A DNA stretch of 64,000 nt from Gammaproteobacteria bacterium. GTDB lineage: Bacteria; Pseudomonadota; Gammaproteobacteria; Eutrophobiales; Eutrophobiaceae. The notes beneath the pieces are model-generated. The model was not told where the DNA came from. It was given only the letters and a program-made list of their open reading frames with translations, and made no database searches. Shown piece by piece: positions 10,761 to 41,163 of the stretch (position 1 is its first letter; the number at the start of each line of letters is the position of its first letter). The translations under genes were made by a program, and so were the position numbers. The DNA lies in contig JAPOQU010000124.1 in NCBI GenBank assembly GCA_026710545.1, forward strand, positions 62,001-126,000, read 5' to 3'.

Positions 10761-10793
10761 CCTGCTCAACATCAGTGAAATAATGTTCAGGCC

Positions 10794-13438: not shown

Positions 13439-13468
13439 CAGATAGCCTGACAGTGGGGGGAACAGATA

Positions 13469-17240: not shown

Positions 17241-17245
17241 CGGCC

Positions 17246-19260: not shown

Positions 19261-19318
19261 ATCTGCAGTTCAATATGTGAAACCGTGATATTCAGTAGTT
19301 AACCGGGAGGACACCAAC

Positions 19319-23907: not shown

Positions 23908-23941
23908 ATTAACAACACTGTTGATTATGTAGGACAATTTA

Positions 23942-23970
23942 TTGACTTTCCAACTGAATAGTACTATTCT
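23942..23970 (+). promoter_or_regulatory. candidate promoter for the module A receptor
   Basis: TTGACT (23942-23947), 17-nt spacer, TATTCT (23965-23970). A start near 23977 would leave a leader of ~220 nt before the receptor ATG at 24197. That stretch (23977-24196) holds only a weak 55-codon ORF (23995-24162) without ribosome site or recognisable family; nothing else was seen in it. Confidence 0.45.
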
Positions 23971-24196
23971 CTGATTAACAGAGAACCTATTCAGATGCAT
24001 AACATGGCATTATCTGGCCAGTTCGTGTCTAGCTTGCTACTCATGATGTCATCCCATGTTGCCCGCACTGCCGATTCGCTAGTGCTGTCCTGGCGAAATA
24101 AAAACCCAATTCGGAATCATTTCTACGACTCTGGTGCCAACGAAGGCATCGGATTTACCTGATAGTTTTATTTGCGCTGTACAAGGGGGGGGTATC

Positions 24197-26557
24197 ATGG
24201 CACACGTATTTCAACACCTGGTGTTAGTCAGCAGTCAGTATTTTCGTCTGGGTTTGTTCATTTTCGCAAATCTCAGTTTATTGGCCGCGATCCCAATGCA
24301 TGCTGCACATGCACAGGCGACGGCAATCGAAGAAATTGTTGTAACCGCTCAATATCGGGAACAGCGGATACAGGATATTCCCATTTCGATGCAGGCCTTC
24401 AGTGGAGAAGACCTGTTGGGAATGCGAATCCACACGCCGAAGGACCTCGCGAGCATTGTTCCCGGCCTGTTCATGAATGAAAGTTCCCTGAACCAGACAG
24501 ACCCGGAGTTTACCCTGCGCGGTATCGGCACCAACAGTAATTCAAGTAATCAGAATCCGACACTTCCACTTTACGTTGGCGGCGTCGCAGTCCCCTACAA
24601 CGGCATGGTTGCTCATGCCTTGTTTGACATGGACAGGATCGAGGTTTTAAAAGGGCCGCAGGGTACCCTGTACGGCCGCAATACAACGGGTGGAGCAGTT
24701 AATTTTATCCCGCGCCGGCCGGGGTCTGAGTGGGGTGGTTATGTCAGCGCGTCGTATGGTAACCGTAACACTACCAACGTCGAGGGAGCGGTCGATATTC
24801 CGGTCGGTGAATCATTCGCCCTGAGGGTCGCAGGCGTGGTCGCGCTGGAAGATGGATGGCAGACCATAGATAACCGGCATCTCTTCGATAATCCCAGTCT
24901 TGGCAGCCATCGTCGCAACGGTGATATAGACCGCAATGCCTTTCGCATAAGTTCCCTCTGGCAGCCTACATCTGATTTTGAGGTGCTGACGGCAATCGAT
25001 GCCGGTTGGGACGATTCCCAGGTAATAGCCATGAAACATGCCGGCAATACCATCCACACAGACCCGAATACTTTCTGCAGTTTTGCCGTCACTGGAGTAC
25101 GGGATGAAAGCCAGTGTGCCTCCTTTGGCTATAATACTGCGAATGCCGTACATATCCCTGTCCACATCAGCGGTTACGACCTCACTGTACAAGGCCCAAC
25201 GGACCGTGGTGTTCTGACCGTAGTAACTGATCCCAACCCGGATCCCAGAACTACTATCAAGGAGTTCGGGCTCGGCAGCAATATAGATGCTCAATCCATA
25301 GGCCTTGCCAATACGATTAACTGGACCCTCGAGCGTGTGACTCTCACTTCTGTTACCGGCTATCGGAATTTTCAGAGAACGACCGGTATCGGTCAGCAGG
25401 GCGGGCCGTTCAAAACGATAGGCGGAATTTCCAAGCAGAACATCAGCGTAGTCACCCAGGAACTCAGGATAGCTTCAGATGATTCATGGGGTGACTTCAA
25501 TTGGGTCGTGGGCGCCTATTATTCGGAAGAGGAACAGTACGACCTGCTGGTGCCCGATCTCAGCGAGCACCATCTCTTTTCTACCATCTTTCACCACAAC
25601 ACGGAACAGCAGACCGACTCTGTGGCCGGCTTCGGCCAGGTCGAATGGGACATGACTGAGCAGATTCAGTTGGTTGCGGGCATTCGATACACCTCGGAGT
25701 CCAGAGACTTCCAACAAAACGGCCACCTGGTCGGGACCCCGCTTCCGTTGGTTACCGCTTACAACGGCACCATAGATGGTGACCAGGTGACCTGGAAAGC
25801 GGGTGTCAATTACAGGCCAAACGCGGATATGCTGGTCTATGCCAGCGTCGCCACCGGCTTCCGCGGGCAGAGTTTTCCCGGTTCCATCAGTTTTGGCGAT
25901 CCGGACCAGTTTCAGCCCTTTGATGAAGAAAATATTATCGCGTATGAAGCGGGCTTCAAATCCCGGTTGCTGGACGGCAGGCTGAAATTCAATGCAGCTG
26001 CATATTATTATGACTGGGAGGATTTCCAGGCCTCTACCGGGGTCGACGTAAACGAGATTCGCCTGATCATACTGGGCAATGCCGGTGATGTTGAGATTTA
26101 TGGTGTGGAGGCTGAACTGGTATGGTCGCCCACTGCTGAACTCTCATTTTACCTTGGCGCCAATTACGTTGACTCTGACATAGTAGCCGGTACCTACGAA
26201 GGAGACACTACCACCCGCACACCGGAAATTTCTCTGAATGGTATGCTGCGCTATGATTCGGAAAAAACTTACGGACCGTTTCAGCCTTTCGCTCAATTCG
26301 ACTTCAGCTTTACGGACGATGTGGAATTCCAGTTGCCAAATCACCCGGGATCTTCGGGTTATTCGTACTGGCTTGCCAATGCATCAGTTGGCGCGAAACT
26401 CCCGGATCAGAATTGGGAGGTGTCATTCTGGATGCGGAATATCGGTGACAAGACATACCGGACCGAGGCTTTTGGCGCTGCTTCCACGTTTCTACCGGCA
26501 GGTATTCTGTACGGTTCACCCCAAACTTACGGTGCAAGTGTTTCCTACAGCTTCTGA
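24197..26557 (+). CDS. TonB-dependent outer-membrane receptor (module A)
   Basis: About 786 residues from ATG 24197, which has a run of G (GGGGGGGG) as ribosome site; the open frame extends further upstream but without support. The signal peptide ends near HAAHAQA, then AIEEIVVTAQYREQRIQDIPISMQAF (TonB box and plug start), the plug with RIEVLKGPQGTLYGRNTTGGAVNFIPRRP and a C-terminal SVSYSF strand. It is more like the receptor at 30253 than like the one at 6100. Its import partner is the MFS gene upstream and its degradation partner the S9 peptidase downstream, so peptides or proline-rich ligands are a reasonable guess. Confidence 0.93.
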   Translation: MAHVFQHLVLVSSQYFRLGLFIFANLSLLAAIPMHAAHAQATAIEEIVVTAQYREQRIQDIPISMQAFSGEDLLGMRIHTPKDLASIVPGLFMNESSLNQTDPEFTLRGIGTNSNSSNQNPTLPLYVGGVAVPYNGMVAHALFDMDRIEVLKGPQGTLYGRNTTGGAVNFIPRRPGSEWGGYVSASYGNRNTTNVEGAVDIPVGESFALRVAGVVALEDGWQTIDNRHLFDNPSLGSHRRNGDIDRNAFRISSLWQPTSDFEVLTAIDAGWDDSQVIAMKHAGNTIHTDPNTFCSFAVTGVRDESQCASFGYNTANAVHIPVHISGYDLTVQGPTDRGVLTVVTDPNPDPRTTIKEFGLGSNIDAQSIGLANTINWTLERVTLTSVTGYRNFQRTTGIGQQGGPFKTIGGISKQNISVVTQELRIASDDSWGDFNWVVGAYYSEEEQYDLLVPDLSEHHLFSTIFHHNTEQQTDSVAGFGQVEWDMTEQIQLVAGIRYTSESRDFQQNGHLVGTPLPLVTAYNGTIDGDQVTWKAGVNYRPNADMLVYASVATGFRGQSFPGSISFGDPDQFQPFDEENIIAYEAGFKSRLLDGRLKFNAAAYYYDWEDFQASTGVDVNEIRLIILGNAGDVEIYGVEAELVWSPTAELSFYLGANYVDSDIVAGTYEGDTTTRTPEISLNGMLRYDSEKTYGPFQPFAQFDFSFTDDVEFQLPNHPGSSGYSYWLANASVGAKLPDQNWEVSFWMRNIGDKTYRTEAFGAASTFLPAGILYGSPQTYGASVSYSF

Positions 26558-28813: not shown

Positions 28814-30166
28814 ATGTCCCTAATCAACAGGCAAGAAGACTACCCAAACCAGATCTACGCCTGGTACGTCGTCGGTGTTTTGACGGTTGCTTATATCTTT
28901 TCCTTCGTCGACCGGCAGATTATCAACCTGCTGGTCGAACCTATCCAGCAAGACCTGCAGCTTACCGACACACAGATATCGCTCCTGCAGGGGATTGCCT
29001 TTGCCCTGTTCTACACCCTGATGGGCATCCCCATTGCCCGTCTTGCAGACGTCTCGAACCGGCGCGCCATCATTGCCGCCGGCGTGTTCCTCTGGAGCCT
29101 GATGACCGCGCTGTGCGGACTGGCAAAATCTTTCGGGCAGTTGTTTGTCGCGCGCATCGGGGTGGGAATAGGGGAGGCCGCGCTGTCGCCGCCTGCTTTT
29201 TCGCTGTTTACTGATTACTTTCCTCCCGGCAAGGTTACCCGGGCCATTGCAGTATTTTCCGGGGGCAGCTTTCTCGGCGCCGGGCTGGCATATATTATCG
29301 GCGGTTACGTAGTTGATTTTGTCACCAGGCTGGACGTTGTTGATATCCCGGTTTTCGGACAGCTCCGCGCCTGGCAGATGGCATTCATCGCCGTCGGCTT
29401 ACCCGGCATTTTACTTGCGCTGCTGGTGCTGTCCCTGCGCGAACCGGCACGCAGGGGACTGCTCGGAGATCAACCGGGCGCAGTTCCCAAGAGCATTCCA
29501 ATCAGGGAAATCATTGCATTTTTGCGCAAACACCGGGGCACCTATGGGTATCATTTTATCGGGGCTTCGCTGTTCGTGATGCTGGCCCATGCGATCCTGT
29601 CCTGGGCCCCGGTATTTTTTATTCGCAAGTACGACTGGATGCCGGGAGAGGTCGGACTCATCTACGGAAGCACGTTGCTGATTTTCGGTACTTCCGGCGT
29701 GGTCGGAGCGGGATGGATCGCGGACGCATTGCGCCGGCGTGGTTATACGGACGCTAACCTGAGAGTTATCGTGATTGGGGCTCTCTGCTGCACTCCGTTC
29801 GGCGCTGCCGCCTTCCTGGTCGACAATATCTGGCTCGCAGTGGCGCTGATGGCGCCGTTTACCTTTCTCTGGGCCCTGCCGCATGGTATTTCTCCTGCCG
29901 CGATACAACTGGTCACACCTAACCAGATGCGGGCCCAGGTCACGGCGCTGTATTTTTTGACTGTCAACCTCATAGGACTTGGTATAGGTCCGACCTTCGT
30001 CGCCCTGCTGACCGACTATGTATACGAAGATCCGGCCCTGGTCGGCCATTCCCTGGCAACCGTGGTTGCAATATCGGCGCCGCTGTCGGCGCTCATCCTG
30101 TATCCAGGACTGAAATATTACCGGGCCAGCCTGGTGCAGGCAGAGCAGGGCTGGCAGAAGTTGTGA
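28814..30166 (+). CDS. MFS permease (module B, paralogue of 22558-23907)
   Basis: 450 residues, nearly the same protein as that encoded at 22558: identical landmark segments FTDYFPPGKVTRAIAVF, TSGVVGAGW and RRRGYTDANLRVI. Only the first ~8 residues differ (SLINRQED versus PDTEQKD), after which YPNQ.YAWYVVGVLTVAYIFSF is shared. The 3' flank also matches module A: AACAACACTGT.GATTAT follows the stop in both. The pair of modules is best explained by a segmental duplication that carried the permease and the receptor. The ATG lies in GC-rich sequence without clear ribosome site. Confidence 0.92.
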   Translation: MSLINRQEDYPNQIYAWYVVGVLTVAYIFSFVDRQIINLLVEPIQQDLQLTDTQISLLQGIAFALFYTLMGIPIARLADVSNRRAIIAAGVFLWSLMTALCGLAKSFGQLFVARIGVGIGEAALSPPAFSLFTDYFPPGKVTRAIAVFSGGSFLGAGLAYIIGGYVVDFVTRLDVVDIPVFGQLRAWQMAFIAVGLPGILLALLVLSLREPARRGLLGDQPGAVPKSIPIREIIAFLRKHRGTYGYHFIGASLFVMLAHAILSWAPVFFIRKYDWMPGEVGLIYGSTLLIFGTSGVVGAGWIADALRRRGYTDANLRVIVIGALCCTPFGAAAFLVDNIWLAVALMAPFTFLWALPHGISPAAIQLVTPNQMRAQVTALYFLTVNLIGLGIGPTFVALLTDYVYEDPALVGHSLATVVAISAPLSALILYPGLKYYRASLVQAEQGWQKL

Positions 30167-30186
30167 AATAACAACACTGTCGATTA

Positions 30187-30215
30187 TTGACAATTTTACG
30201 CGTAATCAATATCCT
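30187..30215 (+). promoter_or_regulatory. candidate promoter for the module B receptor
   Basis: TTGACA (30187-30192), 17-nt spacer, TATCCT (30210-30215). The leader would be ~30 nt and contains a strong ribosome site (GGGGGGGAGG) immediately before ATG 30253. The box arrangement corresponds to that in front of the module A receptor. Confidence 0.55.
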
Positions 30216-30252
30216 GTAACAGGCGCAATGCTCACTTACCGAGGGGGGGAGG

Positions 30253-32562
30253 ATGATGATGAATTACTTGATTGGCCGGTTTTCCGTTTATTTTCAGTCT
30301 ATTACAATACTTATTTCATGTATTGCCTTATTTTCTGCACCTGTTTCCGCCCAGATTGAAGAAATCATCGTCACGGCGCAGAAACGCGAACAGAACGTCC
30401 AGGACGTATCTATTTCCATAACGGCATTTACCGGTGATACGTTACAGGACCTCGGTGTTGCTCAACCCCGGGACCTGGCGCAATTCACGCCCGGGTTAAC
30501 GGTTAACGCCAGTTCCTCCTACGAGGGCGATTCGGTGTTCACCATTCGCGGGGTGGGGATGAATGACGTCACCAGCAAGCAGAACCCGGCGGTCATGATC
30601 TACCTGGATGAAATCGCCCTGCCGTCGCACGTAATGCTGGGCTTTCAGATGTTCGATGTGGATCGGGTTGAGGTACTGAAGGGACCGCAAGGTACCCTGT
30701 ATGGCCGCAATACCACGGGCGGCGCGATAAAGGTCGTGCCGCGCAAACCCACCAAGGAATTCGACCTGCAGGCGCGCTTCGATTACGCGGAATATGACCG
30801 GACGGAGTTGGAACTAGGTGTCGGCGGTCCTTTGGGCGATACCTTGTCGGCGCGGGTTGCCGCAAACATCAACGTATCGCAGCACGGCTGGCAGACCCTG
30901 GAGACAATACCGGAAGTGCCGTTCGGTCCAGGAGTGGACCCCGATAACGGGGAGATTGACAGGAAGGCCTATCGCGGATCGATACTGTGGGAACCCACTG
31001 AGCAATTTGACATCCTCATCAGCGGCGACTATTCAGAGGATAAATCCGAGGTAATGGCATTCAAACATGCGGGTAATTTGTTTGCGGATGGTTCACCAGG
31101 CTTTTGTTCCTATGCAACCGAAGGCATACGCAATGAGGTGGAATGCGCCTCGTTCGCGCAGATACGCGACCGCACGGGTGGTACGCCTTTAACGCCTGAA
31201 AGAGAGATAATCCAGGACCGCAACCCGGATATACGCACGGTACTGGGCGAATTCTCCACCGGCAACCAGGTAGATGCCGAATCCTGGGGAATTTCAGCGA
31301 CTGTCAACATTGATTTCGACCGGTTTACCGCCACCTCCATCACCGGTTACCGGGAATTTGACCGGTACCAGCCCCTGGACCAGGGCGGTTCGCCTGCGTA
31401 TATACATGAAATCAGGAACTGGGAAGATATTACCAGTTTTACCCAGGAAATACGCTTTGCCTCCGATGACAGCTGGGGGCCGATAGACTGGATCGTCGGC
31501 GGGTTCTACAGTAAAGATGATAATGACTTCTTCTCGGATACCGATTTTCGCGACCATGCCTCATTCTCCGGTTTTTTTGAAAGCGGATCAGACCAGGAGA
31601 CGGAAGGCATCTCCGCATTTGCCCAGGTTGACTGGCGTATGCATGAAATGTTCAAACTGTCGCTGGGGATTCGCTATACCGATGAAGATCGCGAGTTTTC
31701 CTTCAGCGGCAAGATTACCGGCAGTGGCCCGGTACCGCTTCCTTTGTTCACGCATCCGAAGCTGAATACCGAGGAGGTCGGCGGCAGGGTGGCGCTGGAA
31801 TTTACGCCGACCGACAACCTGCTGTTATACGCCAGTTTCAACCGCGGCTTCAAGAGCGGCGGGTTCCCGGCTTCGATTGCCTTCAGCCGCAACCAGTTGC
31901 TGCCGTTTAAGTCCGAGGAATTACTGGCGTACGAAGCCGGCTTCAAGTCCACGCTGCTTGACGGCAACGTACGGTTTAACGCCGCGGGCTATTACTACGA
32001 CTGGAATGACATGCAGGCGCGCGCGGCGCTCGACAGGATCGACCCCGTTTCGGGACAGAATGTCAGGGTGATTACGTTGGGCACTGCAGGTGACGTTGAA
32101 ATCTACGGCGCCGAGGCGGAGTTCACCTGGCAGCTTACTCCTGAATTGCTGGTCTATACCGGCGTTAGCCTGATGGATGCGGAAATTCAAAACGGGGATT
32201 ATGAGGACCAGACCCCTGCCCATGCGCCTGATTTCACGATAAACGGCCTGGCCAGCTACACGGCGTCACAGGGAATAGGCGGGTTCCGGCCTTTTGCCCA
32301 GTTCGATTACAGCTATACGGATTCAAACCAGTTTATCCTGCCGAATCACCCCGGCGCGGTGCAGAATTCCTATACGCTGCTGAATGCCCGAATAGGTCTC
32401 AGGTCCGATGACGGGCACTGGGAACTGGCGGGCTGGGGCCGTAACCTGTCGGACAAGGAGTACTTCAGTGAGATTTTCGGGCCTGCTTCAGGCTTTCTGC
32501 CGGGCCGTCTTCACTACGGTCCACCGCGGATATTCGGGGTAAGCATCAGCTACAGTCATTAA
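30253..32562 (+). CDS. TonB-dependent outer-membrane receptor (module B)
   Basis: 769 residues. Three ATG codons stand in a row (30253, 30256, and 30259 after an intervening residue pattern MMMN); the ribosome site GGGGGGGAGG fits the first or second. The signal peptide ends near VSAQ; IEEIIVTAQKREQNVQDVSIS starts the plug, which carries RVEVLKGPQGTLYGRNTTGGAIKVVPRKP. Many positions match the module A receptor (for example FKSGGFPASIAF versus FRGQSFPGSISF; WEDFQAST versus WNDMQARA), but overall similarity is lower than that of the permeases, as expected if ligand loops diverged. The C-terminal strand is SISYSH. Confidence 0.93.
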   Translation: MMMNYLIGRFSVYFQSITILISCIALFSAPVSAQIEEIIVTAQKREQNVQDVSISITAFTGDTLQDLGVAQPRDLAQFTPGLTVNASSSYEGDSVFTIRGVGMNDVTSKQNPAVMIYLDEIALPSHVMLGFQMFDVDRVEVLKGPQGTLYGRNTTGGAIKVVPRKPTKEFDLQARFDYAEYDRTELELGVGGPLGDTLSARVAANINVSQHGWQTLETIPEVPFGPGVDPDNGEIDRKAYRGSILWEPTEQFDILISGDYSEDKSEVMAFKHAGNLFADGSPGFCSYATEGIRNEVECASFAQIRDRTGGTPLTPEREIIQDRNPDIRTVLGEFSTGNQVDAESWGISATVNIDFDRFTATSITGYREFDRYQPLDQGGSPAYIHEIRNWEDITSFTQEIRFASDDSWGPIDWIVGGFYSKDDNDFFSDTDFRDHASFSGFFESGSDQETEGISAFAQVDWRMHEMFKLSLGIRYTDEDREFSFSGKITGSGPVPLPLFTHPKLNTEEVGGRVALEFTPTDNLLLYASFNRGFKSGGFPASIAFSRNQLLPFKSEELLAYEAGFKSTLLDGNVRFNAAGYYYDWNDMQARAALDRIDPVSGQNVRVITLGTAGDVEIYGAEAEFTWQLTPELLVYTGVSLMDAEIQNGDYEDQTPAHAPDFTINGLASYTASQGIGGFRPFAQFDYSYTDSNQFILPNHPGAVQNSYTLLNARIGLRSDDGHWELAGWGRNLSDKEYFSEIFGPASGFLPGRLHYGPPRIFGVSISYSH

Positions 32563-32653: not shown

Positions 32654-34021
32654 ATGGTCACCATGAGAAACATTTTTTCAGCCATCACATGCATTCTATT
32701 GTTTAGCGCACCAGGTATCAGTGCGGCAGAAACCACCACTTTCACTACTACGGATGATACCCGGAAGGTGCCGGTCCCACCCCATGATTACTCTGCAGAC
32801 CCGTTGCTCGTATTACAGGGGGGGACCCTGATTAACGGCACCGGTACGGCTCCCATAACCGACGCATTGGTGGCGCTGCGCGGTGATCGGATATTTTATG
32901 CCGGAAATGCGGCCGGGGCCGAGGTTTCGACGGAAGAGGGGCAGGTTATCGACACGTCAGGTTTATATATCGTGCCGGGATTGATTGACCTGCATGTTCA
33001 CTTCACCCAGCAACGCGGCATGGATTTTACCCGCTATCGCAACTCGGATGCGGCCTCGGCCATTCGCGGGGTCCTGCTGCTGGGCCAACTGGCTGACGCC
33101 GGAGTTACCACGGTCCGTGACGTGGGCACCTCCAATGACGTTGCATTACGGATCAAGGAGGCCGTCGAAAGGCGCATGGTCGACGGGCCGCGCGTGTTAT
33201 GGAGCGGTAATCTCATTGCTGCGAGAGGCGGGCATGCGGATGAGATTTCGTCAACAGCTACAGGCAAGCCGAAAAGCACGGCGACTTCCAGCCGGGTGCG
33301 TGTCGCGACCGGGCCCTGGGACTGGAGGTTGGCGGTACGGGAACAGATTCGCAAGCAGGCGGACTGGATCAAGCTTACCTCGCCCTATACCCGGGAGGAG
33401 GTCAATGCCGCAGTGGACGAAGCTCACATGCAGGGTATTCCTGTTACTGTTGACTCATTCGGCAAATATACCGAGTGGGCGTCCGAAGCAGGTGTCGACT
33501 CGATCGAGCATCCTCTGGGGATGGACGAGCATATTATCGCAGTCATGGCCCGCAACAAGACGGACTTTGTGCCGACACTAACCGCATTCTATAACGTGGA
33601 GAAAACGGGCTATCCCTCGGCGGGAATCCCCTCCGGTGGTTTTTTCTACACTTTCGCTCGCCGTTTTCCCGTCGTTCATGCACAACATCTTGAGATGGTC
33701 GGACTCGCGCACAAGGCTGGAATCCGTATCGGTGTAGGTTCGGATATCCCGTTCGAAAACGACGTGCGCTATCCCCAGGATTATTATGTAGAGCTTGGCT
33801 TGTTGAAAGACGCAGGTCTCACGGATGCGGACGTGTTTGCCTCAGCGACCCGTGTCGGCGCAGAAATATTGAAAATGGAGGACAAACTCGGCACCCTGGA
33901 GCCAGGAAAGCTGGCGGACATCCTTGTAGTCGGCAGTAACCCCCTTGAGGACATACAAAACCTCCAGGATGTAAAACTGGTCGTTGCGGACGGCAGGGTG
34001 ATACGCGATTTCATCCAGTGA
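32654..34021 (+). CDS. secreted amidohydrolase (imidazolonepropionase/prolidase-like)
   Basis: About 455 residues from ATG 32654, which follows GAGGAGA; ATG 32663 is also possible. The signal peptide ends near ISAAE. The metal site pieces of the amidohydrolase superfamily can be read: LIDLHVHFTQQ (HxH), the carboxylated Lys strand GADWIKLTSPYT, a helix with IEHPLGMDEH (His ligands) and the last Asp in GVGSDIPFENDV. The C-terminus has the standard LGTLEPGKLADILVV. Enzymes of this type release proline- or amide-containing fragments from peptides in the periplasm. It directly follows the module B receptor (92 nt) and overlaps the next gene by 4 nt. Confidence 0.9.
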   Translation: MVTMRNIFSAITCILLFSAPGISAAETTTFTTTDDTRKVPVPPHDYSADPLLVLQGGTLINGTGTAPITDALVALRGDRIFYAGNAAGAEVSTEEGQVIDTSGLYIVPGLIDLHVHFTQQRGMDFTRYRNSDAASAIRGVLLLGQLADAGVTTVRDVGTSNDVALRIKEAVERRMVDGPRVLWSGNLIAARGGHADEISSTATGKPKSTATSSRVRVATGPWDWRLAVREQIRKQADWIKLTSPYTREEVNAAVDEAHMQGIPVTVDSFGKYTEWASEAGVDSIEHPLGMDEHIIAVMARNKTDFVPTLTAFYNVEKTGYPSAGIPSGGFFYTFARRFPVVHAQHLEMVGLAHKAGIRIGVGSDIPFENDVRYPQDYYVELGLLKDAGLTDADVFASATRVGAEILKMEDKLGTLEPGKLADILVVGSNPLEDIQNLQDVKLVVADGRVIRDFIQ

Positions 34022-34503
34022 ATCGCATCATCAGGTTTACCGAGCTCCGGTCCGGACTATCGGCGAGGTGTGTTCTACTCGACGATAAAGCTCCACATTC
34101 AGCCGAATTTTTATGGCGACTGGCGCAGACCCGGCCCACGCACGACGCCATCCATGCCATGTGGACAGGACCGGAACTCTCCTGTCCGCTACCCGCTGCA
34201 GTATTGCCTGAGGAACTCGCGCAGACTGATATGCCATTGGAGAATGCCAGCTCATTTCCCCAGGCCGGGGAAATTGTCCTTGCCTATGCCAGGTCGGGCA
34301 GCATAAAAGGAATCCCGCCCGGGGCGTTCTTTGACCTGGGCATTTTCTACGGAGATGGAGGTCGCCTGTTTTTCCCGTTCGGCTGGATGATGGCCAATAT
34401 CTGTGGCGAGATTGTTCCAGAGGACCTTGCTGATGCGCAAAGCTGTATCGGTCAGATCCGGAATAGTGGTGCCTGTAAGTTGTCCATAGAACCGCTGGAC
34501 TGA
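34018..34503 (+). CDS. DUF3830 family protein
   Basis: 161 residues; GTG 34018 overlaps the amidohydrolase stop (GTGA), so the genes are coupled. The sequence has the DUF3830/cyclophilin-like pattern: an early A-P-H-S-A-E-F-L-W-R-L region, W-T-G-P-E-L, and a C-terminal F-D-L-G-I-F-Y-G-D strand with N-I-C-G-E. DUF3830 proteins are commonly found beside hydantoinase- and amidohydrolase-type genes, but no enzymatic role is established to my knowledge. No signal peptide, so it acts in the cytoplasm. Confidence 0.75.
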   Translation: MNRIIRFTELRSGLSARCVLLDDKAPHSAEFLWRLAQTRPTHDAIHAMWTGPELSCPLPAAVLPEELAQTDMPLENASSFPQAGEIVLAYARSGSIKGIPPGAFFDLGIFYGDGGRLFFPFGWMMANICGEIVPEDLADAQSCIGQIRNSGACKLSIEPLD

Positions 34504-34515
34504 TCAGGACCCACC

Positions 34516-35832
34516 ATGAGCGCGGGTGAGGTAGAAGAAAATACGCTTTGGAACAAAGTTACGCTGTCTGTGTCAGGCTTTACCTCTTTGACGGGTATCC
34601 ATGAAACTGAAATTGCAGTCGTAGGCGGCGGGGTTGCCGGACTCTCGCTTGCGTACCATTTAACCGAAGCAGGCATGGCGCCTGTGGTATTGGAGGCGCT
34701 AACCCCTGGTGGTGATGCTGCCGGGAAAAGCGCCGGTCTCGTAGTGTCTCTTTCAGTCCGCCACAGCCCGTATGAATTACTGGAACAATACGGTGAAGAA
34801 AAAGGTCGATGCCTTGTGGACATGATAGGAGAGTCCGGGGAATACGTGTTTTCCCTGGTGCGTAAACTGGGTCTCGATTGCGCACCCCAGCAAACGGGAT
34901 TCCTGGGCCCGGCGAGAACCGTTCGGGAGGTTGAACGGGTCAACAAGGTAGCTTCAGAGTGGCGTTCGTTTGGGTACGGGATTCAAACCGTTGATAAGAA
35001 CACAATCTGCCGCCTGACAGGACTGGATACCTACCAGGGGGCGCTGCTGGACCCGGCCGGCGGCGCAATCAACCCGCTTGCTTATGTGCGGGAACTGGCG
35101 CGGGCGGCGACAGGGCAGGGCGCTCGGTTATTCATTAACAGCCCGGTGTTTGAAGTACATAAGACCGGCACAGGATGGCGCCTCGAGTCAGATAAATTCC
35201 GGGTTAATGCAAGAACAGTCGTGCTTTGTGCAGGTGGAGGCAATCGAAAACTGTCTGCCGGCCTCGCCAACACGGTCCTGCCGTTCAGGGTTTTTCAGAT
35301 GGCAACGGAACCTCTGGATAGTGAAGTAAGGGAAGTAATCCTGCCTGAAAACCACTCAATGACAGATGTCAGTCCGAATATTTATTCGATGCGTTACGAC
35401 AGGGATGGACGGCTGATTACGGCCTGTCCTGCATTTATGTTAAATAATGCCAAAAGCCGGATTGTCCATTTTGTCGAAGAACGGCTAAAACACTTCTCTC
35501 CGCTGCTGGCTTCGGCCCGTATCCGCTACCTGTGGATGGGGACGACGTGGATAAGCCGTTCCATATTGCCCAGGTTTACGGAATTGTCGGAAGGATTGTT
35601 TGCCATGCAGGCCTGTAACGGCAGGGGCCTGGCGATTAACACGGTTCTCGGGCGCGAAGCCGCCGGATTTATTAAACAGGGACACACCGGAAAACTGAAT
35701 TTATTGATTGAGAGACCGGATGCAATTCGCCATTACCGTTTGATGTCACACTTACCCGCTATACTTATCAATGCTGCCAGGCTTCGCTCCCGGGTAATGC
35801 ATAGAATCACGGGTCTTCACTGTTACAACTGA
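34516..35832 (+). CDS. FAD-dependent oxidoreductase (DAO family: amine/D-amino-acid oxidase-like)
   Basis: 438 residues. The Rossmann FAD-binding motif VVGGGVAGLSLAYHLTEAG begins at about residue 35, with the following acidic end of the second strand (VVLEA) for the ribose. Residues 190-260 carry GGAINPLAYVRELARAATGQGA and the VVLCAGG strand of the DAO family; AMQACNGRGLAINTVLGREAA near 370 is the C-terminal FAD-site helix. It would oxidise a primary or secondary amine, such as a (N-methyl) amino acid or glycine derivative. It is 12 nt downstream of the DUF3830 gene and forms an operon with it and the amidohydrolase, so the amine may be what the hydrolase releases. Confidence 0.88.
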   Translation: MSAGEVEENTLWNKVTLSVSGFTSLTGIHETEIAVVGGGVAGLSLAYHLTEAGMAPVVLEALTPGGDAAGKSAGLVVSLSVRHSPYELLEQYGEEKGRCLVDMIGESGEYVFSLVRKLGLDCAPQQTGFLGPARTVREVERVNKVASEWRSFGYGIQTVDKNTICRLTGLDTYQGALLDPAGGAINPLAYVRELARAATGQGARLFINSPVFEVHKTGTGWRLESDKFRVNARTVVLCAGGGNRKLSAGLANTVLPFRVFQMATEPLDSEVREVILPENHSMTDVSPNIYSMRYDRDGRLITACPAFMLNNAKSRIVHFVEERLKHFSPLLASARIRYLWMGTTWISRSILPRFTELSEGLFAMQACNGRGLAINTVLGREAAGFIKQGHTGKLNLLIERPDAIRHYRLMSHLPAILINAARLRSRVMHRITGLHCYN

Positions 35833-35888
35833 GTACATGCATTTCCATCGACAAATGGAACAGTAACTTATCAATTCCGGAGAACACC

Positions 35889-37586
35889 ATGAAACACATA
35901 CACGCAGATTTCCTGCCAATTTTAGTTGCCTTCGCTGTTCTTTGCAGCGGCTGTGCCGAACAAAATCGGGCGGCAGACCTGATTATTCACAATGGGAAAA
36001 TTGTCACGGTCGACAAGGATTTCTCCATCGCTGAAGCCGCTGCAGTCAAGGATGGGAAGTTCATGCAGGTGGGAACAGAAGATTCGGTCCTTGAGAGCGC
36101 GGGCCCGGGTACGATGATGGTTGACCTTGGAGGCCAGACGGTCCTTCCCGGGTTCAACGATACCCACAGCCACATGACGACAATGGGGATCAACCTGCCG
36201 ACGATGATAGACCTGACCGAAGTAACTTCGATCGACGATATCAAGCAGGCGGTTGCTGAACGTGTCGCGGTCACGGAAAAGGGCGAATGGATTTTCAGCG
36301 AGGGTGGCTGGTGGCAGTTCATGCTGGAGGATGGGCGCCTGCCCAATCGGCATGACCTTGACGAGGTCTCACCTGACAACCCGGTGACCTTGAAAGGCGG
36401 CCATTATGTCATAGCTAACAGTATGGCGCTGGAACGGGTAGGCTACGACAGGGACAGCGAAAATCCGCCTGGTGGAGAGATATGGAAGGATAATAAGGGA
36501 GAGCCCACCGGCTTTCTTGTGCGCAATGCCATGTACCCGTTTCTGGATCATTTTCAGACACCGGACAGGGAAGTGCAGTTGGATGGTATCCGCCAGGCAA
36601 TCAGGCGCGTGAACAGTTGGGGCATGACGAGCCTGAGAGAACCCGGCGGTAGCCGGGAACTTGTCGATATGCTGCGCGAACTGTATGAAGGCGGGGAACT
36701 CACCGTAAGGATCGACTGGTGCTACGATGTCGACGCCAATACCCCGGAGGATGAGATGGATGCCATGTTCGAAGCCCTGGGAGACCCGGAAGAGAAATGG
36801 GGAGACGGTATGTTCAGGACTGACGGCTTAGCGGAAATGATGCTGGACGGCGCCGAGGAATCTGCCCAGATTCGCACGGAATACCTGGGCCGGCCCGGCT
36901 ACTACGGACTGCGGCTTATTGAACAGGACCAACTGAACAAGTTTGTGCTGGCAGCCGCGCGGCACGGATGGCGCCCGGGCCCCCATGCCGTCGGCGGGGC
37001 CTCCATCGATCAGCTGCTGGATGCTTACGAGTATGTCAACGAACACATCGACATTCGCGACCAGCGCTGGATTGTGGACCACGGCATCCTGCTGCAACCG
37101 GATCATTACGACCGGGTCAAAAGTCTCGGACTGATCGTGCTGCCCCAACCCAGGCACCTGTATATCATCGGCGACAAATTCATAGAGCACTGGGGTGAGG
37201 AACTGGCGCATAAATCCTATCGTCTGAGGGACTGGCTGGACAACGGCATAAAACTTTCACTGGGCGCGGACAAGCCGGTATCTTCCCGTTCAAAACCGAT
37301 AATGCAGATTTACGTCGCAGTCACCAGAGGAACAGGCTGGGGCGGGGTACTCGGTGCGGACCAGGGACTGACCCGGGAAGAGGCCATACGCGGCATTACG
37401 CTGGATTCGGCCTACACCAGCTTTGAGGAAGATGTCAAAGGATCAATCGAGCCGGGCAAGTATGCGGACTTTGTGGTGTTGTCGGACGATATCCTTACCG
37501 TGCCGGCCGAGGATATCAAGGACATTGAAGTCGAGGCAACCGTGCTGGCGGGGAAGGTCGTATACGGTTCATATCCGGCAAACTGA
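35889..37586 (+). CDS. amidohydrolase, YtcJ-like, probable lipoprotein
   Basis: 565 residues. The N-terminus (KHIHADFLPILVAFAVLCSGCAE) has a hydrophobic segment ending in C-S-G-C, an imperfect lipobox, so an outer-membrane lipoprotein is possible. Metal-site features follow: NDTHSHMTTMG (HxH around 98), an HGGH-like shift to GGHYVIANSM, PHAVGG, and the final Asp in LGADKP. The chain contains the E-E-A-I-R-G-I-T-L-D-S and IEPGKYADFVVLS of YtcJ-type amidases, which hydrolyse N-substituted formamides or amides. Expressed 56 nt after the oxidoreductase, with its own ribosome site GGAG. Confidence 0.87.
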   Translation: MKHIHADFLPILVAFAVLCSGCAEQNRAADLIIHNGKIVTVDKDFSIAEAAAVKDGKFMQVGTEDSVLESAGPGTMMVDLGGQTVLPGFNDTHSHMTTMGINLPTMIDLTEVTSIDDIKQAVAERVAVTEKGEWIFSEGGWWQFMLEDGRLPNRHDLDEVSPDNPVTLKGGHYVIANSMALERVGYDRDSENPPGGEIWKDNKGEPTGFLVRNAMYPFLDHFQTPDREVQLDGIRQAIRRVNSWGMTSLREPGGSRELVDMLRELYEGGELTVRIDWCYDVDANTPEDEMDAMFEALGDPEEKWGDGMFRTDGLAEMMLDGAEESAQIRTEYLGRPGYYGLRLIEQDQLNKFVLAAARHGWRPGPHAVGGASIDQLLDAYEYVNEHIDIRDQRWIVDHGILLQPDHYDRVKSLGLIVLPQPRHLYIIGDKFIEHWGEELAHKSYRLRDWLDNGIKLSLGADKPVSSRSKPIMQIYVAVTRGTGWGGVLGADQGLTREEAIRGITLDSAYTSFEEDVKGSIEPGKYADFVVLSDDILTVPAEDIKDIEVEATVLAGKVVYGSYPAN

Positions 37587-37658
37587 CAATTAATCTTATA
37601 TATAACAACCGGCCACAGGAAGCCGGTTACTGATGCCTGACTACGGGAGGATTTGATA

Positions 37659-38924
37659 ATGAATTTCCAGTTTTTCCAGAAGTTACTCCTGACAGCCGGA
37701 AAAACAGCTTTTTTGCTGTTTTGCTGTAACGCGTTTGCAGAACCTTATTGGATAACGGGGGGTACTTTGATTGATGGGACCGGGGCCGAGCAGAGACCCA
37801 ATCCCGGCATTCTCATCAATGAAGGAAACATAGTTTCCCTGGGTAACCCCGGCTCTCTGCCGGAAGATGCACGGGAAATCAATGCCAAGGGGAAATGGCT
37901 GCTGCCAGGACTGTACGACCTGCATGCGCACATTACCTTCAAGCTGGCGGGCGCCCGAGACCTGGAAGACGATGTTATCAATGCCCTGCGATCCGAACGT
38001 TTCCTGGAGCGTTACCAGGAAATAGGCGTCACGGTGGTACGGGACGTGGCGTCCCGCTACCATGTCGGTTACTCGCTCAAGCGGGCTCAGCGGGACGGGC
38101 TTATCGGGGGCGCCAGGCTGTACGTATCGGGTCCGTTGATTACCACGACCGGGGGACATGCCACGGAATTCCAGCCGTTGATACCGCCAATATGGGCAGT
38201 GGAAGCCGACGGCCCCTGGGAATTCCGCAAGCGCGTGCGCGAGGCGGCGAAACTGGGCGCAGACCTGATCAAGACGACGACCCCGTATACGCTGGAGGAA
38301 CTCAGCGCCGCGGTTGAGGAAGCACATTTATGGAAGCTGCGCCTCACTGCACACCTGGGCGGCGCCCAGGACCCGTATCATACTTCCGGACGGATCGCCG
38401 TTGATGCCGGTGTCGACAGCATGGAGCACCTTTATCCGTTCGGTGATGACGCCGTATACCGGGACATGGTGAAGAAAAATATCAACCTGGTGCCGACCAT
38501 CGGCTACCACCTGCGTGAACTGGATGGGGAGTACACGTATCCTCCGGACTACCTGGCGAAACACCTGGGTCACACCTACGAAGGCATGGTCGAGCGGTTC
38601 AGGAGAATGCACGAACTGGGGGTGAAGTTTGCCGTCGGTACGGATTCCAATGCAAAAGACCTTCCGACCATTGACAAGATCTATTTGCAGGAACTGGAGG
38701 GCTTCACATTAGGCGGATTGACACACATGGAAGTCATCCAGGGGGCTACCTTGATCGGCGCGGAAACGATGGGACTTGACGGGGAGGCCGGCAGCATTGA
38801 AGTGGGGAAATGGGGGGATGTGATATTGCTCGATTCAGACCCTCTAGAAAGCCTGGAAGCGCTGGTAAACCCGAGCCTGGTGATGCAGAACGGAGAGATT
38901 GTCTTCAGGAAAAATCCGCAATAG
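37659..38924 (+). CDS. amidohydrolase, prolidase-like, secreted
   Basis: About 421 residues from ATG 37659, which has GGGAGG 8 nt upstream (a TTG at 37653 is in frame but less likely). The signal peptide ends at NAFAEPYW. Metal ligands: LYDLHAHITF (HxH), the Lys-strand GADLIKTTTPYT, IEHLYP-like MEHLYPFG and the Asp in AVGTDSN. The same family as the protein at 32654-34021, with which it shares K-T-T-x-P-Y-T-x-E-E and the C-terminal GKWGDVILLDSDPLE. A third amidohydrolase in 6 kb suggests that amide-bond cleavage is the common task of this region. Confidence 0.9.
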   Translation: MNFQFFQKLLLTAGKTAFLLFCCNAFAEPYWITGGTLIDGTGAEQRPNPGILINEGNIVSLGNPGSLPEDAREINAKGKWLLPGLYDLHAHITFKLAGARDLEDDVINALRSERFLERYQEIGVTVVRDVASRYHVGYSLKRAQRDGLIGGARLYVSGPLITTTGGHATEFQPLIPPIWAVEADGPWEFRKRVREAAKLGADLIKTTTPYTLEELSAAVEEAHLWKLRLTAHLGGAQDPYHTSGRIAVDAGVDSMEHLYPFGDDAVYRDMVKKNINLVPTIGYHLRELDGEYTYPPDYLAKHLGHTYEGMVERFRRMHELGVKFAVGTDSNAKDLPTIDKIYLQELEGFTLGGLTHMEVIQGATLIGAETMGLDGEAGSIEVGKWGDVILLDSDPLESLEALVNPSLVMQNGEIVFRKNPQ

Positions 38925-38944
38925 TGTCTCAGCTTAAAAGTATG

Positions 38945-38977
38945 TTATGTTAAATAGACAAAGTCTATTTAACATAA
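38945..38977. terminator. perfect 15-bp hairpin between convergent genes
   Basis: Arms 38945-38959 and 38963-38977 are exact complements with a 3-nt AAA loop. A second perfect 14-nt palindrome ATTATGCGCATAAT (38983-38996) follows. Both lie between the amidohydrolase stop and the convergent flavin-type gene. A bidirectional terminator is the natural reading, but the stem is AT-rich and lacks a clear T-tract, so a binding site is an alternative. Confidence 0.55.
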
Positions 38978-39100
38978 TATATATTATGCGCATAATGTGG
39001 AGGTATGACAAAGATGCTTAAACAGAAACCTGGAGTTCTGAAATAAATACCCGATTAAAACCAGCGGTTCCGGCGTCTTGCTTGAAGAGCCGAATCAGTT

Positions 39101-39721
39101 TCAGTAAAGGTTGTCCTGGTATTCCTGGTCCACTATTCCCTGTACTTCTTCCCTTGACTTGGGCACACCTGACTGATCCTTGATAACCTGGCCGAATGGC
39201 GCTATCACACCTTTTGCTATGTGCTGGTCGGGGTCCCAGAGTTTTGAGCGTATCAAAGCCTTGCCGCAATGCATGTATGCTTTGGTAACTTTTATGAGAG
39301 TGGCTGTTGCAGGCAATTTGGATCCAGCCTTGCCCAGTTTGAGGAGATCTGTGTCCAGCACTATCTCGGCTTCGCCATGGACACGTAATGTTTCCATAAC
39401 GCCCGGAATAAAAAATATCAGGGAAACCTTGGGGTTTTCCACAATATTTCCGAATCCCTCAACTTTATTATTCCCGGGCCTGTCGGGTATTAGCAGTGTT
39501 TTCTCATCAAGAACTTTAACAAATCCCGGGGCATCCCCTTTGGGTGATACGGCCGGTTGACCTGCGGCCCCGGTGCTGGCTAAACATATGAATGGAGAAT
39601 GTTCTATAAAGTGTCGATGATGCTTGTCAAGCTGTGGCTTTTCTACTGCAACGGCGATGTGCAACGGTTCGCCAAAGTGCTCGCGTAATTCCTGTGGTTC
39701 AGTTATTGTATCCAAAGCCAT
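39101..39721 (-). CDS. pyridoxamine 5'-phosphate oxidase-like FMN-binding protein
   Basis: 206 residues of the split-barrel flavin-binding fold, of the kind annotated as the MSMEG_1061 family. Landmarks are ICLASTGAAGQPAVSPKGDAPGFVKV (FMN phosphate region), TLLIPDRPGNNKVEGFGNIVENPKVSLIFFIPG (residues ~95-125) and the late MHCGKALIRSKLWDP. Likely a small flavoenzyme or flavin/heme-binding protein. It is divergent from the M20 gene (119 nt) and convergent with the amidohydrolase gene. The relation to either is unclear. Confidence 0.85.
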   Translation of the reverse strand: MALDTITEPQELREHFGEPLHIAVAVEKPQLDKHHRHFIEHSPFICLASTGAAGQPAVSPKGDAPGFVKVLDEKTLLIPDRPGNNKVEGFGNIVENPKVSLIFFIPGVMETLRVHGEAEIVLDTDLLKLGKAGSKLPATATLIKVTKAYMHCGKALIRSKLWDPDQHIAKGVIAPFGQVIKDQSGVPKSREEVQGIVDQEYQDNLY

Positions 39722-39840
39722 GATTTATCTCCCGTGTCTTGATGAATCCGGTTTTCAAAATAGTTGATATCTTCTATTCGTTTGATACCCTGAGTTTAAT
39801 ATAATTACAAATGTCGAAAAATTAATTTCTGTCCAAGCCC

Positions 39841-41163
39841 ATGCAAAATTATTCCCTGCTCCTCGTTATCCTAATTCAACTGGCATTCAATGTATCCGCA
39901 GATTCTACGCTTAAAACGGCGATACATGATGATTATCCTTATCTTGAAGCCCTTTATACACACCTGCACATGAATCCTGAGATTTCTTTCCAGGAAGAGA
40001 ATACCAGTGTACGGATGGCGAACGAACTCCGCAGCCTGGGGTTTACGGTCACCGAAAAGGTCGGCGGCCATGGTGTCGTCGGCGTATTGATAAACGGTGA
40101 AGGTCCTACTGTACTGCTGAGAACGGACATGGATGCCCTGCCCATCCTTGAGAAAACAGGAAAACCCTATGCAAGCACTAAAACCACCGTAGACGAGCAC
40201 GGAAATACGGTCAGTGTCATGCATGCCTGTGCCCATGACGTGAATATGACCGTTTTTACCGGTGCTGCCAGGCGTCTCACGGCCATGACTGACAAGTGGC
40301 AAGGTACCCTGGTCATGATTGCGCAACCTGCCGAAGAGCGCGGCGCCGGCGCCCGTGCGATGCTGAAAGACGGCCTGTTCGAACGTTTCCCGCGACCCGA
40401 TTACAACCTGGGCATGCATGTGAGCGCATCCCTACCAGCCGGGACAGTGATCCATACAAAGGGTTATGTGATGGCCAGCGTTGATTCCGTGGATATCACG
40501 GTATATGGCGTTGGAGGTCACGGCGCCTATCCACAACGGACGAAAGATCCTGTCGTGCTCTCGGCCCAGATCATCAATGCCCTGCAAACCCTTGTTTCGC
40601 GCGAGATTAAACCCATAGATGCCGGTGTCGTCACGGTTGGTTCCATACATGGAGGGACCAAACACAACATCATTCCCGATGAAGTGAAACTGCAACTGAC
40701 GGTACGTTCATATACGGATGAAACGCGTGCCAAACTGCTCGATGGTATTAAAAGAATAGCCAGGGGCCAGGCCATTGCCATGGGACTGCCGGACGACAAA
40801 CTGCCCGACGTTATAATTGCGGACGAATCCACCCCTTCCACGTATAACAACCCTGAACTGGCTGATCGCATAGTTAACGTGCTGCAGGCAAAACTGAAAG
40901 ATGTGCCGATAATCCCCGGTGAGCCGGTCATGGGTGGTGAAGATTTCTCCCGGTACGGGCGCGTTGAACCTAAAATACCCAGCCTGTTCCTGTTTATCGG
41001 CGGCGTATATGCCGATAAATATGCAGCGGCCAGGGAAAAAGGTGAAGTCCTGCCCTCCCTGCACTCCCCTTTCTTCGCCCCGGACCCTGAACCGACCATC
41101 CTGACCGGCGTTGAGGTGATGACGACCAGCGCCCTGGAATTGCTGGGGAAAGCCGGTAATTAA
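39841..41163 (+). CDS. secreted M20-family amidohydrolase (N-acyl-amino-acid hydrolase-like)
   Basis: 440 residues with a signal peptide ending at NVSADS. Metal and catalytic features of M20D: RTDMDALPI (Asp), MHACAHDVNMTV, where the usual MHACGHDGH is altered to CAHDVN, a catalytic Glu in QPAEERGAGA, and VMGGEDFSRY near the end. Members cleave amide bonds of N-acyl-amino acids, hippurate or aminobenzoyl-glutamate. The altered His region (GHDGH to AHDVN) should be checked for activity. TATAAT is present about 40 nt before the start but no matching -35 at the right distance was seen. Confidence 0.88.
   Translation: MQNYSLLLVILIQLAFNVSADSTLKTAIHDDYPYLEALYTHLHMNPEISFQEENTSVRMANELRSLGFTVTEKVGGHGVVGVLINGEGPTVLLRTDMDALPILEKTGKPYASTKTTVDEHGNTVSVMHACAHDVNMTVFTGAARRLTAMTDKWQGTLVMIAQPAEERGAGARAMLKDGLFERFPRPDYNLGMHVSASLPAGTVIHTKGYVMASVDSVDITVYGVGGHGAYPQRTKDPVVLSAQIINALQTLVSREIKPIDAGVVTVGSIHGGTKHNIIPDEVKLQLTVRSYTDETRAKLLDGIKRIARGQAIAMGLPDDKLPDVIIADESTPSTYNNPELADRIVNVLQAKLKDVPIIPGEPVMGGEDFSRYGRVEPKIPSLFLFIGGVYADKYAAAREKGEVLPSLHSPFFAPDPEPTILTGVEVMTTSALELLGKAGN

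What the first reader, a model, noticed from the sequence alone, without database searches (positions are those of the whole stretch)
32654..41163. Amide-cleavage island: three amidohydrolases, DUF3830, DAO oxidase, M20 hydrolase
Six genes on one strand (with 4-nt overlap and 12-nt gaps in the first three) encode secreted amidohydrolases, a DUF3830 protein coupled to one of them, an amine-oxidising flavoenzyme and a secreted N-acyl hydrolase with an altered metal motif (CAHDVN for CGHDGH). It suggests stepwise release and oxidation of an amine or amino acid from an amide, perhaps from peptide-like or cyclic amide compounds. DUF3830 has no known function, and its coupling here links it to amide release.
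Basis: partly seen in the sequence, partly recalled or inferred. Interest (0 to 1): 0.5.

Follow-up and report, generated by a model that had tools for sequence, protein, structure and literature searches.

The report
Peptide-breakdown module built around DUF3830
A set of genes that probably take up a peptide-like compound, cut it and oxidise the amino acid it releases contains a small protein of unknown function that, in other bacteria too, nearly always lies near the same type of amino-acid oxidase, which gives this unknown protein family a concrete, testable job.

Summary
The genes are there, but the island is drawn wrongly. An opposite-strand PPOX gene separates M20 from the others, and M20 also occurs in a genus genome without DUF3830. 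The block conserved in the genus is MFS, TonB receptor, amidohydrolase AH1, DUF3830, DAO, AH3, AH2; an S9 peptidase upstream belongs with it. DUF3830 and DAO are a conserved pair: 79 of 80 DUF3830 loci from public genomes hold a DAO homologue (about 0.008 expected), in varying gene orders, across alpha-, beta- and gammaproteobacteria. In nine of nine non-genus genomes with the S9 orthologue it shares DUF3830's contig; AH1 is linked in four of five. Peptidases are a lineage-specific front end (12 of 80 loci). AH1 is an odd prolidase-like amidohydrolase with Asp for the strand-5 His in all seven sequences read. The DUF3830 model (pLDDT 95) resembles, after its own family's structure, bacterial Pictet-Spenglerases (Z 17) more than cyclophilins (Z up to 13.8). 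Best reading: peptides are cut outside the cytoplasm, the released (probably cyclic or N-substituted) amino acid is oxidised to an imine by DAO, and DUF3830 acts on that imine. Substrate and DUF3830 activity remain inferred.

The parts
22558..23907 (+). MFS transporter, first copy (MFS1)
   Evidence: PF07690 E 1.4e-45; a second copy lies at 28814-30166
24134..26557 (+). TonB-dependent receptor, first copy (TonB1)
   Evidence: PF00593/PF07715
26640..28700 (+). S9 (DPP IV / prolyl oligopeptidase type) peptidase, Ser/Asp/His motifs present; true start uncertain (frame open from 26238)
   Evidence: PF00326, PF00930; motifs GLSYGG, HGTRD, GANH; orthologue on the DUF3830 contig in 9 of 9 non-genus genomes that have it, of 14 searched
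28814..30166 (+). MFS transporter (MFS2)
   Evidence: PF07690; an MFS gene stands before TonB2 in 3 genus relatives (L013, L014, L015)
30253..32562 (+). TonB-dependent receptor (TonB2)
   Evidence: PF00593/PF07715; conserved before AH1 in L013, L014, L015, and its end in L016
32654..34021 (+). AH1, amidohydrolase of the prolidase-like group with an export-like N-terminus (by eye) and Asp in place of the strand-5 His
   Evidence: PF01979 105 bits; alignments to 9kov, 2qs8, 3mkv, 3feq; Asp in 7 of 7 AH1 sequences, window included
34018..34503 (+). DUF3830 protein, 161 aa, cyclophilin-like fold
   Evidence: PF12903 102.9 bits, cut-off 26; AF2 model pLDDT 94.9; fold matches
34516..35832 (+). DAO-family FAD amino-acid oxidase, best named relative L-pipecolate oxidase AmaA (below cut-off)
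   Evidence: PF01266 161 bits; NF050086 229 bits, cut-off 600; fold near glycine oxidase and L-proline dehydrogenase
35889..37586 (+). AH3, Amidohydro_3 protein with a lipoprotein-like N-terminus (by eye)
   Evidence: PF07969 322.6 bits; conserved in L013, L015 and, cut by the contig end, L014
37653..38924 (+). AH2, prolidase / carboxypeptidase-like amidohydrolase with an export-like N-terminus (by eye)
   Evidence: PF01979 81.9 bits; best solved match 3mtw L-Arg carboxypeptidase Cc2672; conserved in L013 and L015
39101..39721 (-). PPOX-type flavoprotein, divergent from M20; not part of the module
   Evidence: TIGR04025 224 bits, cut-off 170; same divergent pair in G001, not seen beside M20 in G003 and G004
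39841..41163 (+). M20 (M20D type) hydrolase; not part of the module
   Evidence: TIGR01891 274 bits; orthologue in G004, which lacks DUF3830

Best explanation
This is a catabolic module for a peptide or N-acyl compound. TonB2 brings it across the outer membrane; the exported S9 peptidase and the amidohydrolases AH1 and AH2 (AH3 probably as well) cut it down to an amino acid; a transporter (MFS here, an SBF or amino-acid ABC transporter in other lineages) takes that into the cytoplasm. There DAO oxidises the amine to an imine, and DUF3830, encoded between AH1 and DAO, acts on that product or on its precursor. The amino acid probably has a secondary amine (a cyclic imino acid such as pipecolate, or an N-alkyl amino acid), and DUF3830 most likely handles the (cyclic) imine. 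Shown: the genes, their conserved linkage, and the fold of DUF3830 as a confident model. Inferred: compartments (N-termini judged by eye), substrate class, order of steps, and the reaction of DUF3830.
For: DUF3830-DAO linkage in 79 of 80 loci (24 of 25 representatives under 80% identity, window included) against about 0.008 expected per 20.5 kb, in different gene orders; the best DAO match of each of 20 searched genomes, own included, is the DUF3830-linked copy (by coordinates). S9 orthologue on the same contig in 9 of 9 non-genus genomes that have it, AH1 in 4 of 5, 14 non-genus genomes searched in each. AH1 orthologue in exactly the 5 of 7 genus genomes that have DUF3830. Different hydrolase families recur at some of the loci: S9, DUF885, AH1-type amidohydrolases and M24 (that DUF885 proteins are peptidases is recalled). 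DAO's best-named relative is L-pipecolate oxidase, and among its nearest folds are glycine oxidase, L-proline dehydrogenase and sarcosine oxidases. DUF3830's nearest enzyme folds are the Pictet-Spenglerases McbB and KslB, which close a ring through an iminium (recalled); H46, E75 and Y111 are invariant and position 106 is Asp or Glu in 20 of 20 aligned sequences of the long and short lineages.
Against: No substrate is identified. AH1, AH2, S9 and DAO all score below the cut-offs of the named specific families. Only 12 of the 80 loci (4 of them from the genus) match any of the peptidase or amidohydrolase queries; none of the 58 loci L068-L125, mostly Rhizobium and Mesorhizobium, does, so the peptide step is not general. 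Sphingomonads are rich in such genes (recalled), so part of the clustering there may be background. A shared fold does not show a shared reaction, and McbB/KslB did not appear in sequence-profile searches, so their catalytic residues were not mapped. The Deinococcus DAO best matches glycine oxidase ThiO (94.5 bits, cut-off 250.8), not pipecolate oxidase.
Confidence: 0.45

Rival explanations
1. DUF3830 is a racemase or epimerase that turns the released amino acid into the enantiomer that the DAO enzyme accepts.
For: DAO-family oxidases are stereospecific (recalled). The short DUF3830 lineage sits, in several genomes, next to proteins that look by eye like PuuE allantoinase and UraD, where a chiral allantoin centre next to N and C=O would also be a racemase substrate. 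Invariant H46 and E75 and the acidic position 106 could supply the bases.
Against: No racemase is among the 50 rows shown in either fold table. The PuuE/UraD naming was not tested with a family scan.
Confidence: 0.2
2. DUF3830 is a non-catalytic small subunit or chaperone of the DAO enzyme.
For: Linkage with DAO and a fold shared with cyclophilins; heterotetrameric sarcosine oxidases, near in fold to DAO, have small subunits (recalled).
Against: Conserved polar residues H46, E75, Y111 and the acidic position 106 across lineages of about 20% identity. For the short lineage no match to the window DAO was found within about 1.5 kb or in L017 and L018; the longer stretches were not searched for DAO. 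Distance to DAO varies from adjacent to several kb, in Mesorhizobium on the opposite strand.
Confidence: 0.2
3. DUF3830 is a peptidyl-prolyl isomerase that helps prolidase-type enzymes cut cis Xaa-Pro bonds.
For: Cyclophilin-like fold; prolidase-like, S9 and M24 neighbours at some loci.
Against: The constant partner is DAO. The hydrolases carry export-like N-termini and DUF3830 does not (by eye). Cyclophilins rank below the Pictet-Spenglerases (Z up to 13.8 against 17).
Confidence: 0.08
4. The gene neighbourhood is an ordinary scavenging cluster of unrelated hydrolases and the linkage has no shared pathway behind it.
For: AH1-type amidohydrolases are abundant in the genus: 2 to 13 matches per genome at E up to 1e-20.
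Against: DUF3830-DAO linkage exceeds chance by far; S9 and AH1 orthologues score far above the next match and are linked in 9 of 9 and 4 of 5 non-genus genomes.
Confidence: 0.07

Closest known systems
DUF3830 family (PF12903), solved member 3kop from Arthrobacter sp. FB24
   Same: Passes Pfam cut-off; model matches 3kop at Z 21.7, rmsd 2.1 over 150 residues; H46, E75, D106, Y111 and W123 keep their letters in 3kop
   Different: About 23-26% identity to 3kop; the Pfam title is 'unknown function', and no held paper was found with the family name or accession
Bacterial Pictet-Spenglerases McbB (3x27) and KslB (9nsc and others)
   Same: One half of each aligns to DUF3830 at Z 17, rmsd 2.0 over 133-134 residues
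   Different: Chains of 286-314 residues; biosynthetic Trp enzymes. DUF3830 is a single 161-residue domain in a catabolic-looking setting; no sequence-profile hit; catalytic residues not mapped
L-pipecolate oxidase AmaA and the glycine / sarcosine oxidase, L-proline dehydrogenase fold group
   Same: Best NCBIfam match for the window DAO and for 4 of 5 linked DAO enzymes of other bacteria; among the nearest folds
   Different: 229 bits against a cut-off of 600; the fifth, from Deinococcus, best matches ThiO, below cut-off
Solved prolidase- and carboxypeptidase-type amidohydrolases (2qs8, 3mkv, 3feq, 3mtw Cc2672; group name COG1228 recalled)
   Same: AH1 and AH2 align over nearly the whole length
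   Different: AH1 has Asp where these have the strand-5 His; both score far below the Xaa-Pro dipeptidase cut-off (192 and 167 against 500)

Membership tests
DUF3830 (PF12903) | Pfam profile score above gathering cut-off | tested here: met
   102.9 bits, cut-off 26
DUF3830 (PF12903) | Same fold as the solved member 3kop | tested here: met
   Z 21.7, rmsd 2.1, 150 residues
Cyclophilin peptidyl-prolyl isomerase | Cyclophilin fold | tested here: met
   Z 12-13, rmsd about 3.3; TM1367, titled atypical cyclophilin, Z 13.8; weaker than to the Pictet-Spenglerases
Cyclophilin peptidyl-prolyl isomerase | Cyclophilin catalytic residues | not testable with these tools
   The fold tool gives ranges only, no residue alignment
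McbB/KslB Pictet-Spenglerase | Fold of the catalytic half | tested here: inconclusive
   One half of McbB (3x27, Z 17.4) and of KslB (9nsc, Z 17.1) matches; that the catalytic Glu lies in the matching half of McbB is recalled
McbB/KslB Pictet-Spenglerase | Protein of about 300 residues with two halves | tested here: not met
   161 residues, one domain
McbB/KslB Pictet-Spenglerase | Catalytic Glu and substrate-binding residues | not testable with these tools
   McbB and KslB did not appear in profile searches of solved structures at E up to 10
DAO FAD oxidoreductase (PF01266) | Profile score above cut-off | tested here: met
   161.3 bits, cut-off 27.9
L-pipecolate oxidase AmaA (NF050086) | Curated score cut-off 600 | tested here: not met
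   229 bits
Xaa-Pro dipeptidase (NF051886), for AH1 | Curated score cut-off 500 | tested here: not met
   192 bits
Xaa-Pro dipeptidase (NF051886), for AH1 | HxH, Lys, His (strand 6), Asp (strand 8) metal site | tested here: met
   LH[VI]HF, WIK, EHP, GVG[ST]D in all 7 sequences; that these are ligands is recalled
Xaa-Pro dipeptidase (NF051886), for AH1 | His on strand 5 | tested here: not met
   Asp in 7 of 7 AH1 sequences; His in 9kov, 2qs8, 3mkv, 3feq in ungapped alignment. The MAFFT alignment with AH2 puts a gap at this spot, so the reading rests
Xaa-Pro dipeptidase (NF051886), for AH2 | Curated score cut-off 500 | tested here: not met
   167 bits
S9 peptidase (PF00326) | Profile score and Ser, Asp, His motifs | tested here: met
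   145.3 bits, cut-off 22.6; GLSYGG, HGTRD, GANH
M20D amidohydrolase (TIGR01891) | Curated score cut-off 153.75 | tested here: met
   274.4 bits; but not part of the module

The most novel reading that the evidence does not exclude
DUF3830 is a stand-alone Pictet-Spenglerase-type domain used in reverse: with its partner oxidase it opens cyclic imines or iminium ions made from cyclic amino acids (pipecolate-like or tetrahydro-beta-carboline-like residues of natural-product peptides). It would be a small, cofactor-free cyclic-imine-cleaving enzyme in catabolism, fed here by exported hydrolases that include an amidohydrolase with an unusual Asp-for-His metal site.
Probability: 0.18. Interest if true: 0.8.

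Novelty: new variant of a known kind. Interest (0 to 1): 0.55.

Why it matters
DUF3830 has a solved structure (3kop) but no assigned function in Pfam, and no paper in the held library was found under its name or accession. Its near-constant partnership with one oxidase type, and its closeness in fold to Pictet-Spenglerases, turn an unknown family into a two-protein assay. If it cleaves cyclic imines it would add to a scarce class: a 2019 paper on a copper amine oxidase says that, as far as its authors knew, cyclic-imine-opening enzymes had not been found before (PMC6345859, passages read). AH1's Asp-for-His site is a separate, checkable departure from the amidohydrolase metal site.

Tried and rejected
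A search on enduracididine catabolism (listing seen, none read), done because the class I PLP enzyme beside some DUF3830-DAO pairs best matches GntC (below cut-off), suggested no link. Of papers, passages only were read in PMC7024544, PMC6345859 and PMC12513458; those were seen as listings.

Considered and rejected: M20 and PPOX as parts of the module; M20 as a broken enzyme; the amidohydrolase-DUF3830 coupling as the primary one (DAO is the constant partner); ectoine or creatine degradation as the whole answer (M24 and M20 neighbours exist at a few loci, but no full set was seen; recalled pathways only).

Results against my reading: only 12 of 80 loci match a peptidase or amidohydrolase query; the window DAO query did not detect the adjacent DAO-family gene in the two Deinococcus loci, which Pfam does assign in L011 and which is annotated as FAD-binding oxidoreductase in L012; five of 14 non-genus genomes lack the S9 orthologue and nine of 14 lack AH1; G788 has AH1 on another contig; G770 has S9 on another contig and G768 none at E up to 1e-40; PPOX was not found beside M20 in G003 and G004; AH2 and AH3 linkage was seen only in the genus. 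The 80 loci (of 144 confirmed) are dominated by Rhizobium and Mesorhizobium; the 25-representative count uses the 54 sequences of alignment A2, not all 80. L058 was left out of the DAO alignment because of a stop in the chosen stretch. The chance rate joins two searches with different databases and E-value scales, so it is an estimate.
Full report
What is in the window. Searches give, on the + strand: MFS1 (22558-23907), TonB1 (24134-26557), an S9 peptidase (about 26640-28700), MFS2 (28814-30166), TonB2 (30253-32562), amidohydrolase AH1 (32654-34021), DUF3830 (34018-34503, 4-nt overlap), DAO (34516-35832, 12-nt gap), Amidohydro_3 protein AH3 (35889-37586), amidohydrolase AH2 (37653-38924), then a PPOX flavoprotein on the minus strand (39101-39721) and the M20 gene (39841-41163, +).

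What belongs together within the genus. DUF3830 is in 5 of 7 genus genomes (own genome plus 4 of 6). It is rare around it: 3 of 369 genomes drawn from the class, own included, and 28 of 398 from the phylum. In L013 and L015 the order MFS-TonB2-AH1-DUF3830-DAO-AH3-AH2 is kept; L014 and L016 show the same order up to their contig ends. PPOX and M20 were not found within about 5 kb beyond AH2 there. M20 orthologues (about 81% identity) occur in G001, G003 and G004; G004 has no DUF3830. In G001 M20 and PPOX again form a divergent pair, 6-7 kb beyond AH2; in G003 and G004 no PPOX match lies beside M20. AH1 orthologues of 87-93% identity occur in exactly the five genomes with DUF3830, while G004 and G005 have only distant matches.

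The pair DUF3830-DAO. A scan of the collection of 84,980 species genomes with an alignment of window-type ('long', about 160 aa) DUF3830 gave 144 confirmed places, of which 80 were kept. In 79 of 80 the stretch fetched (up to 20.5 kb, shorter at contig ends) holds a homologue of the window DAO at E up to 1e-10; the one miss, L069, is a 6.1-kb contig. The DAO lies directly downstream (for example the gammaproteobacterial, Komagataeibacter and Caballeronia loci), behind an SBF-type symporter gene (sphingomonads; PF01758 in L054), about 3.3 kb downstream (many Rhizobium loci) or about 4 kb upstream on the other strand (Mesorhizobium). Among 25 representatives under 80% identity, window included, 24 have it. 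Twenty whole genomes, own included, hold 56 DAO matches in about 95 Mb, and in each genome the best match is the DUF3830-linked copy, by my comparison of coordinates. Leaving out the 20 linked copies, 0.38 per Mb remain, about 0.008 per 20.5 kb; the two searches use different E-value scales, so this is an estimate. In the two Deinococcus plasmid loci read DUF3830 abuts an FAD oxidoreductase gene (annotation; PF01266 for L011), next to genes annotated as aminopeptidase P or Xaa-Pro peptidase (PF00557 for one in L011) and a class V aminotransferase; the window DAO query does not reach that oxidoreductase.

The hydrolases. The window S9 peptidase has a clear orthologue (44-50% identity, 630-729 bits; next paralogue at most 187 bits) in 9 of 14 non-genus genomes searched; in all 9 it is on the same contig as DUF3830, in 8 within 2 kb and in Komagataeibacter (G777) 27.5 kb away (distances from the ranges). 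AH1 orthologues (54-58%) occur in 5 of 14 non-genus genomes and are linked in 4, at 6.1-10.6 kb. In all, 12 of the 80 loci, 4 of them from the genus, match an S9, DUF885, amidohydrolase, M24 or M20 query, and none of the 58 loci L068-L125 does. AH1 aligns over most of its length with solved prolidase-type amidohydrolases, but the strand-5 His of 9kov, 2qs8, 3mkv and 3feq is Asp in AH1, and Asp stands there in all seven AH1 sequences read, window and four genus relatives and two sphingomonads. That this His is a metal ligand is recalled. AH2 keeps a His at this strand and its best solved match is the L-Arg carboxypeptidase Cc2672. None of AH1, AH2, DAO or S9 reaches the cut-off of a named specific family.

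Structures. DUF3830 was modelled with 54 aligned sequences, mean pLDDT 94.9. Best fold matches: its own family's 3kop (Z 21.7), then McbB (3x27, Z 17.4, rmsd 2.0, 134 residues) and KslB (Z about 17), then TM1367 (13.8) and cyclophilins (12-13, rmsd about 3.3). McbB and KslB make beta-carbolines from Trp by a Pictet-Spengler step (passages read in PMC7024544 and PMC12513458). In 20 aligned sequences of the long and short DUF3830 lineages (about 20% identity between them) P26, H46, G51, E75, P81, G84, Y111, G122 and G151 are invariant and position 106 is Asp or Glu. The DAO model (pLDDT 89.1) is closest to glycine oxidase, L-proline dehydrogenase and sarcosine oxidases, whose Z values are nearly tied.

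Reading. The simplest account is uptake of a peptide-like compound, extracytoplasmic cutting by S9 and the amidohydrolases, transport, then oxidation of the released amino acid by DAO with DUF3830 acting next to it. A secondary (cyclic or N-alkyl) amino acid fits the DAO relatives, and imine handling fits the fold of DUF3830; both are inference. The conserved core is DUF3830 plus DAO, usually with a transporter gene nearby, and the peptidases are a lineage-specific front end. The isolate labels of the genus MAGs suggest marine or sponge sources; that is recalled from the labels and untested.

Noticed in passing
window 16344-20626 (+): GATase domain protein, a 266-aa frame, a glutamate-synthase-like protein and a type III glutamate-ammonia ligase (TIGR03105, 666 bits) in a row; such sets are known from N-methylglutamate synthesis from methylamine (recalled).
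   Followed up: no
window 12434-14422 (+): Arginine deiminase/DDAH-like protein next to an arginase-family protein.
   Followed up: no
window 9573-12401 (+): Cytochrome P450 followed by a TPR-sulfotransferase fusion.
   Followed up: no
window 22558-26557 and 28814-32562 (+): Duplicated MFS-TonB receptor pair flanking the S9 gene. L047 (same genus) shows S9 and then a single MFS-TonB pair; upstream of S9 was not read there.
   Followed up: partly
window 44662-45708 (-): 348-aa frame without a Pfam match at E 0.001 or an NCBIfam match at E 1e-15.
   Followed up: no
L022, L023, L026, L029, L030, L137: A short (about 137 aa) DUF3830 lineage, motif HVRWSGEG, sits in these genomes next to proteins that look by eye like PuuE allantoinase and UraD, a possible link to urate/allantoin breakdown.
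   Followed up: partly
L061 11872-13041, L066 12724-13929, L067 3931-5091: Class I PLP enzyme near DUF3830-DAO whose best NCBIfam match is GntC, the guanitoxin cyclodehydratase (325 bits in L061, 303 in L067, cut-off 415); L066 was scanned with Pfam only (Aminotran_1_2).
   Followed up: partly
L061 1285-9621: Komagataeibacter: genes that look by eye like an indolepyruvate oxidoreductase, an FAD monooxygenase, a cyclase and a RidA protein are divergent from DUF3830-DAO; possible aromatic amino-acid link.
   Followed up: no
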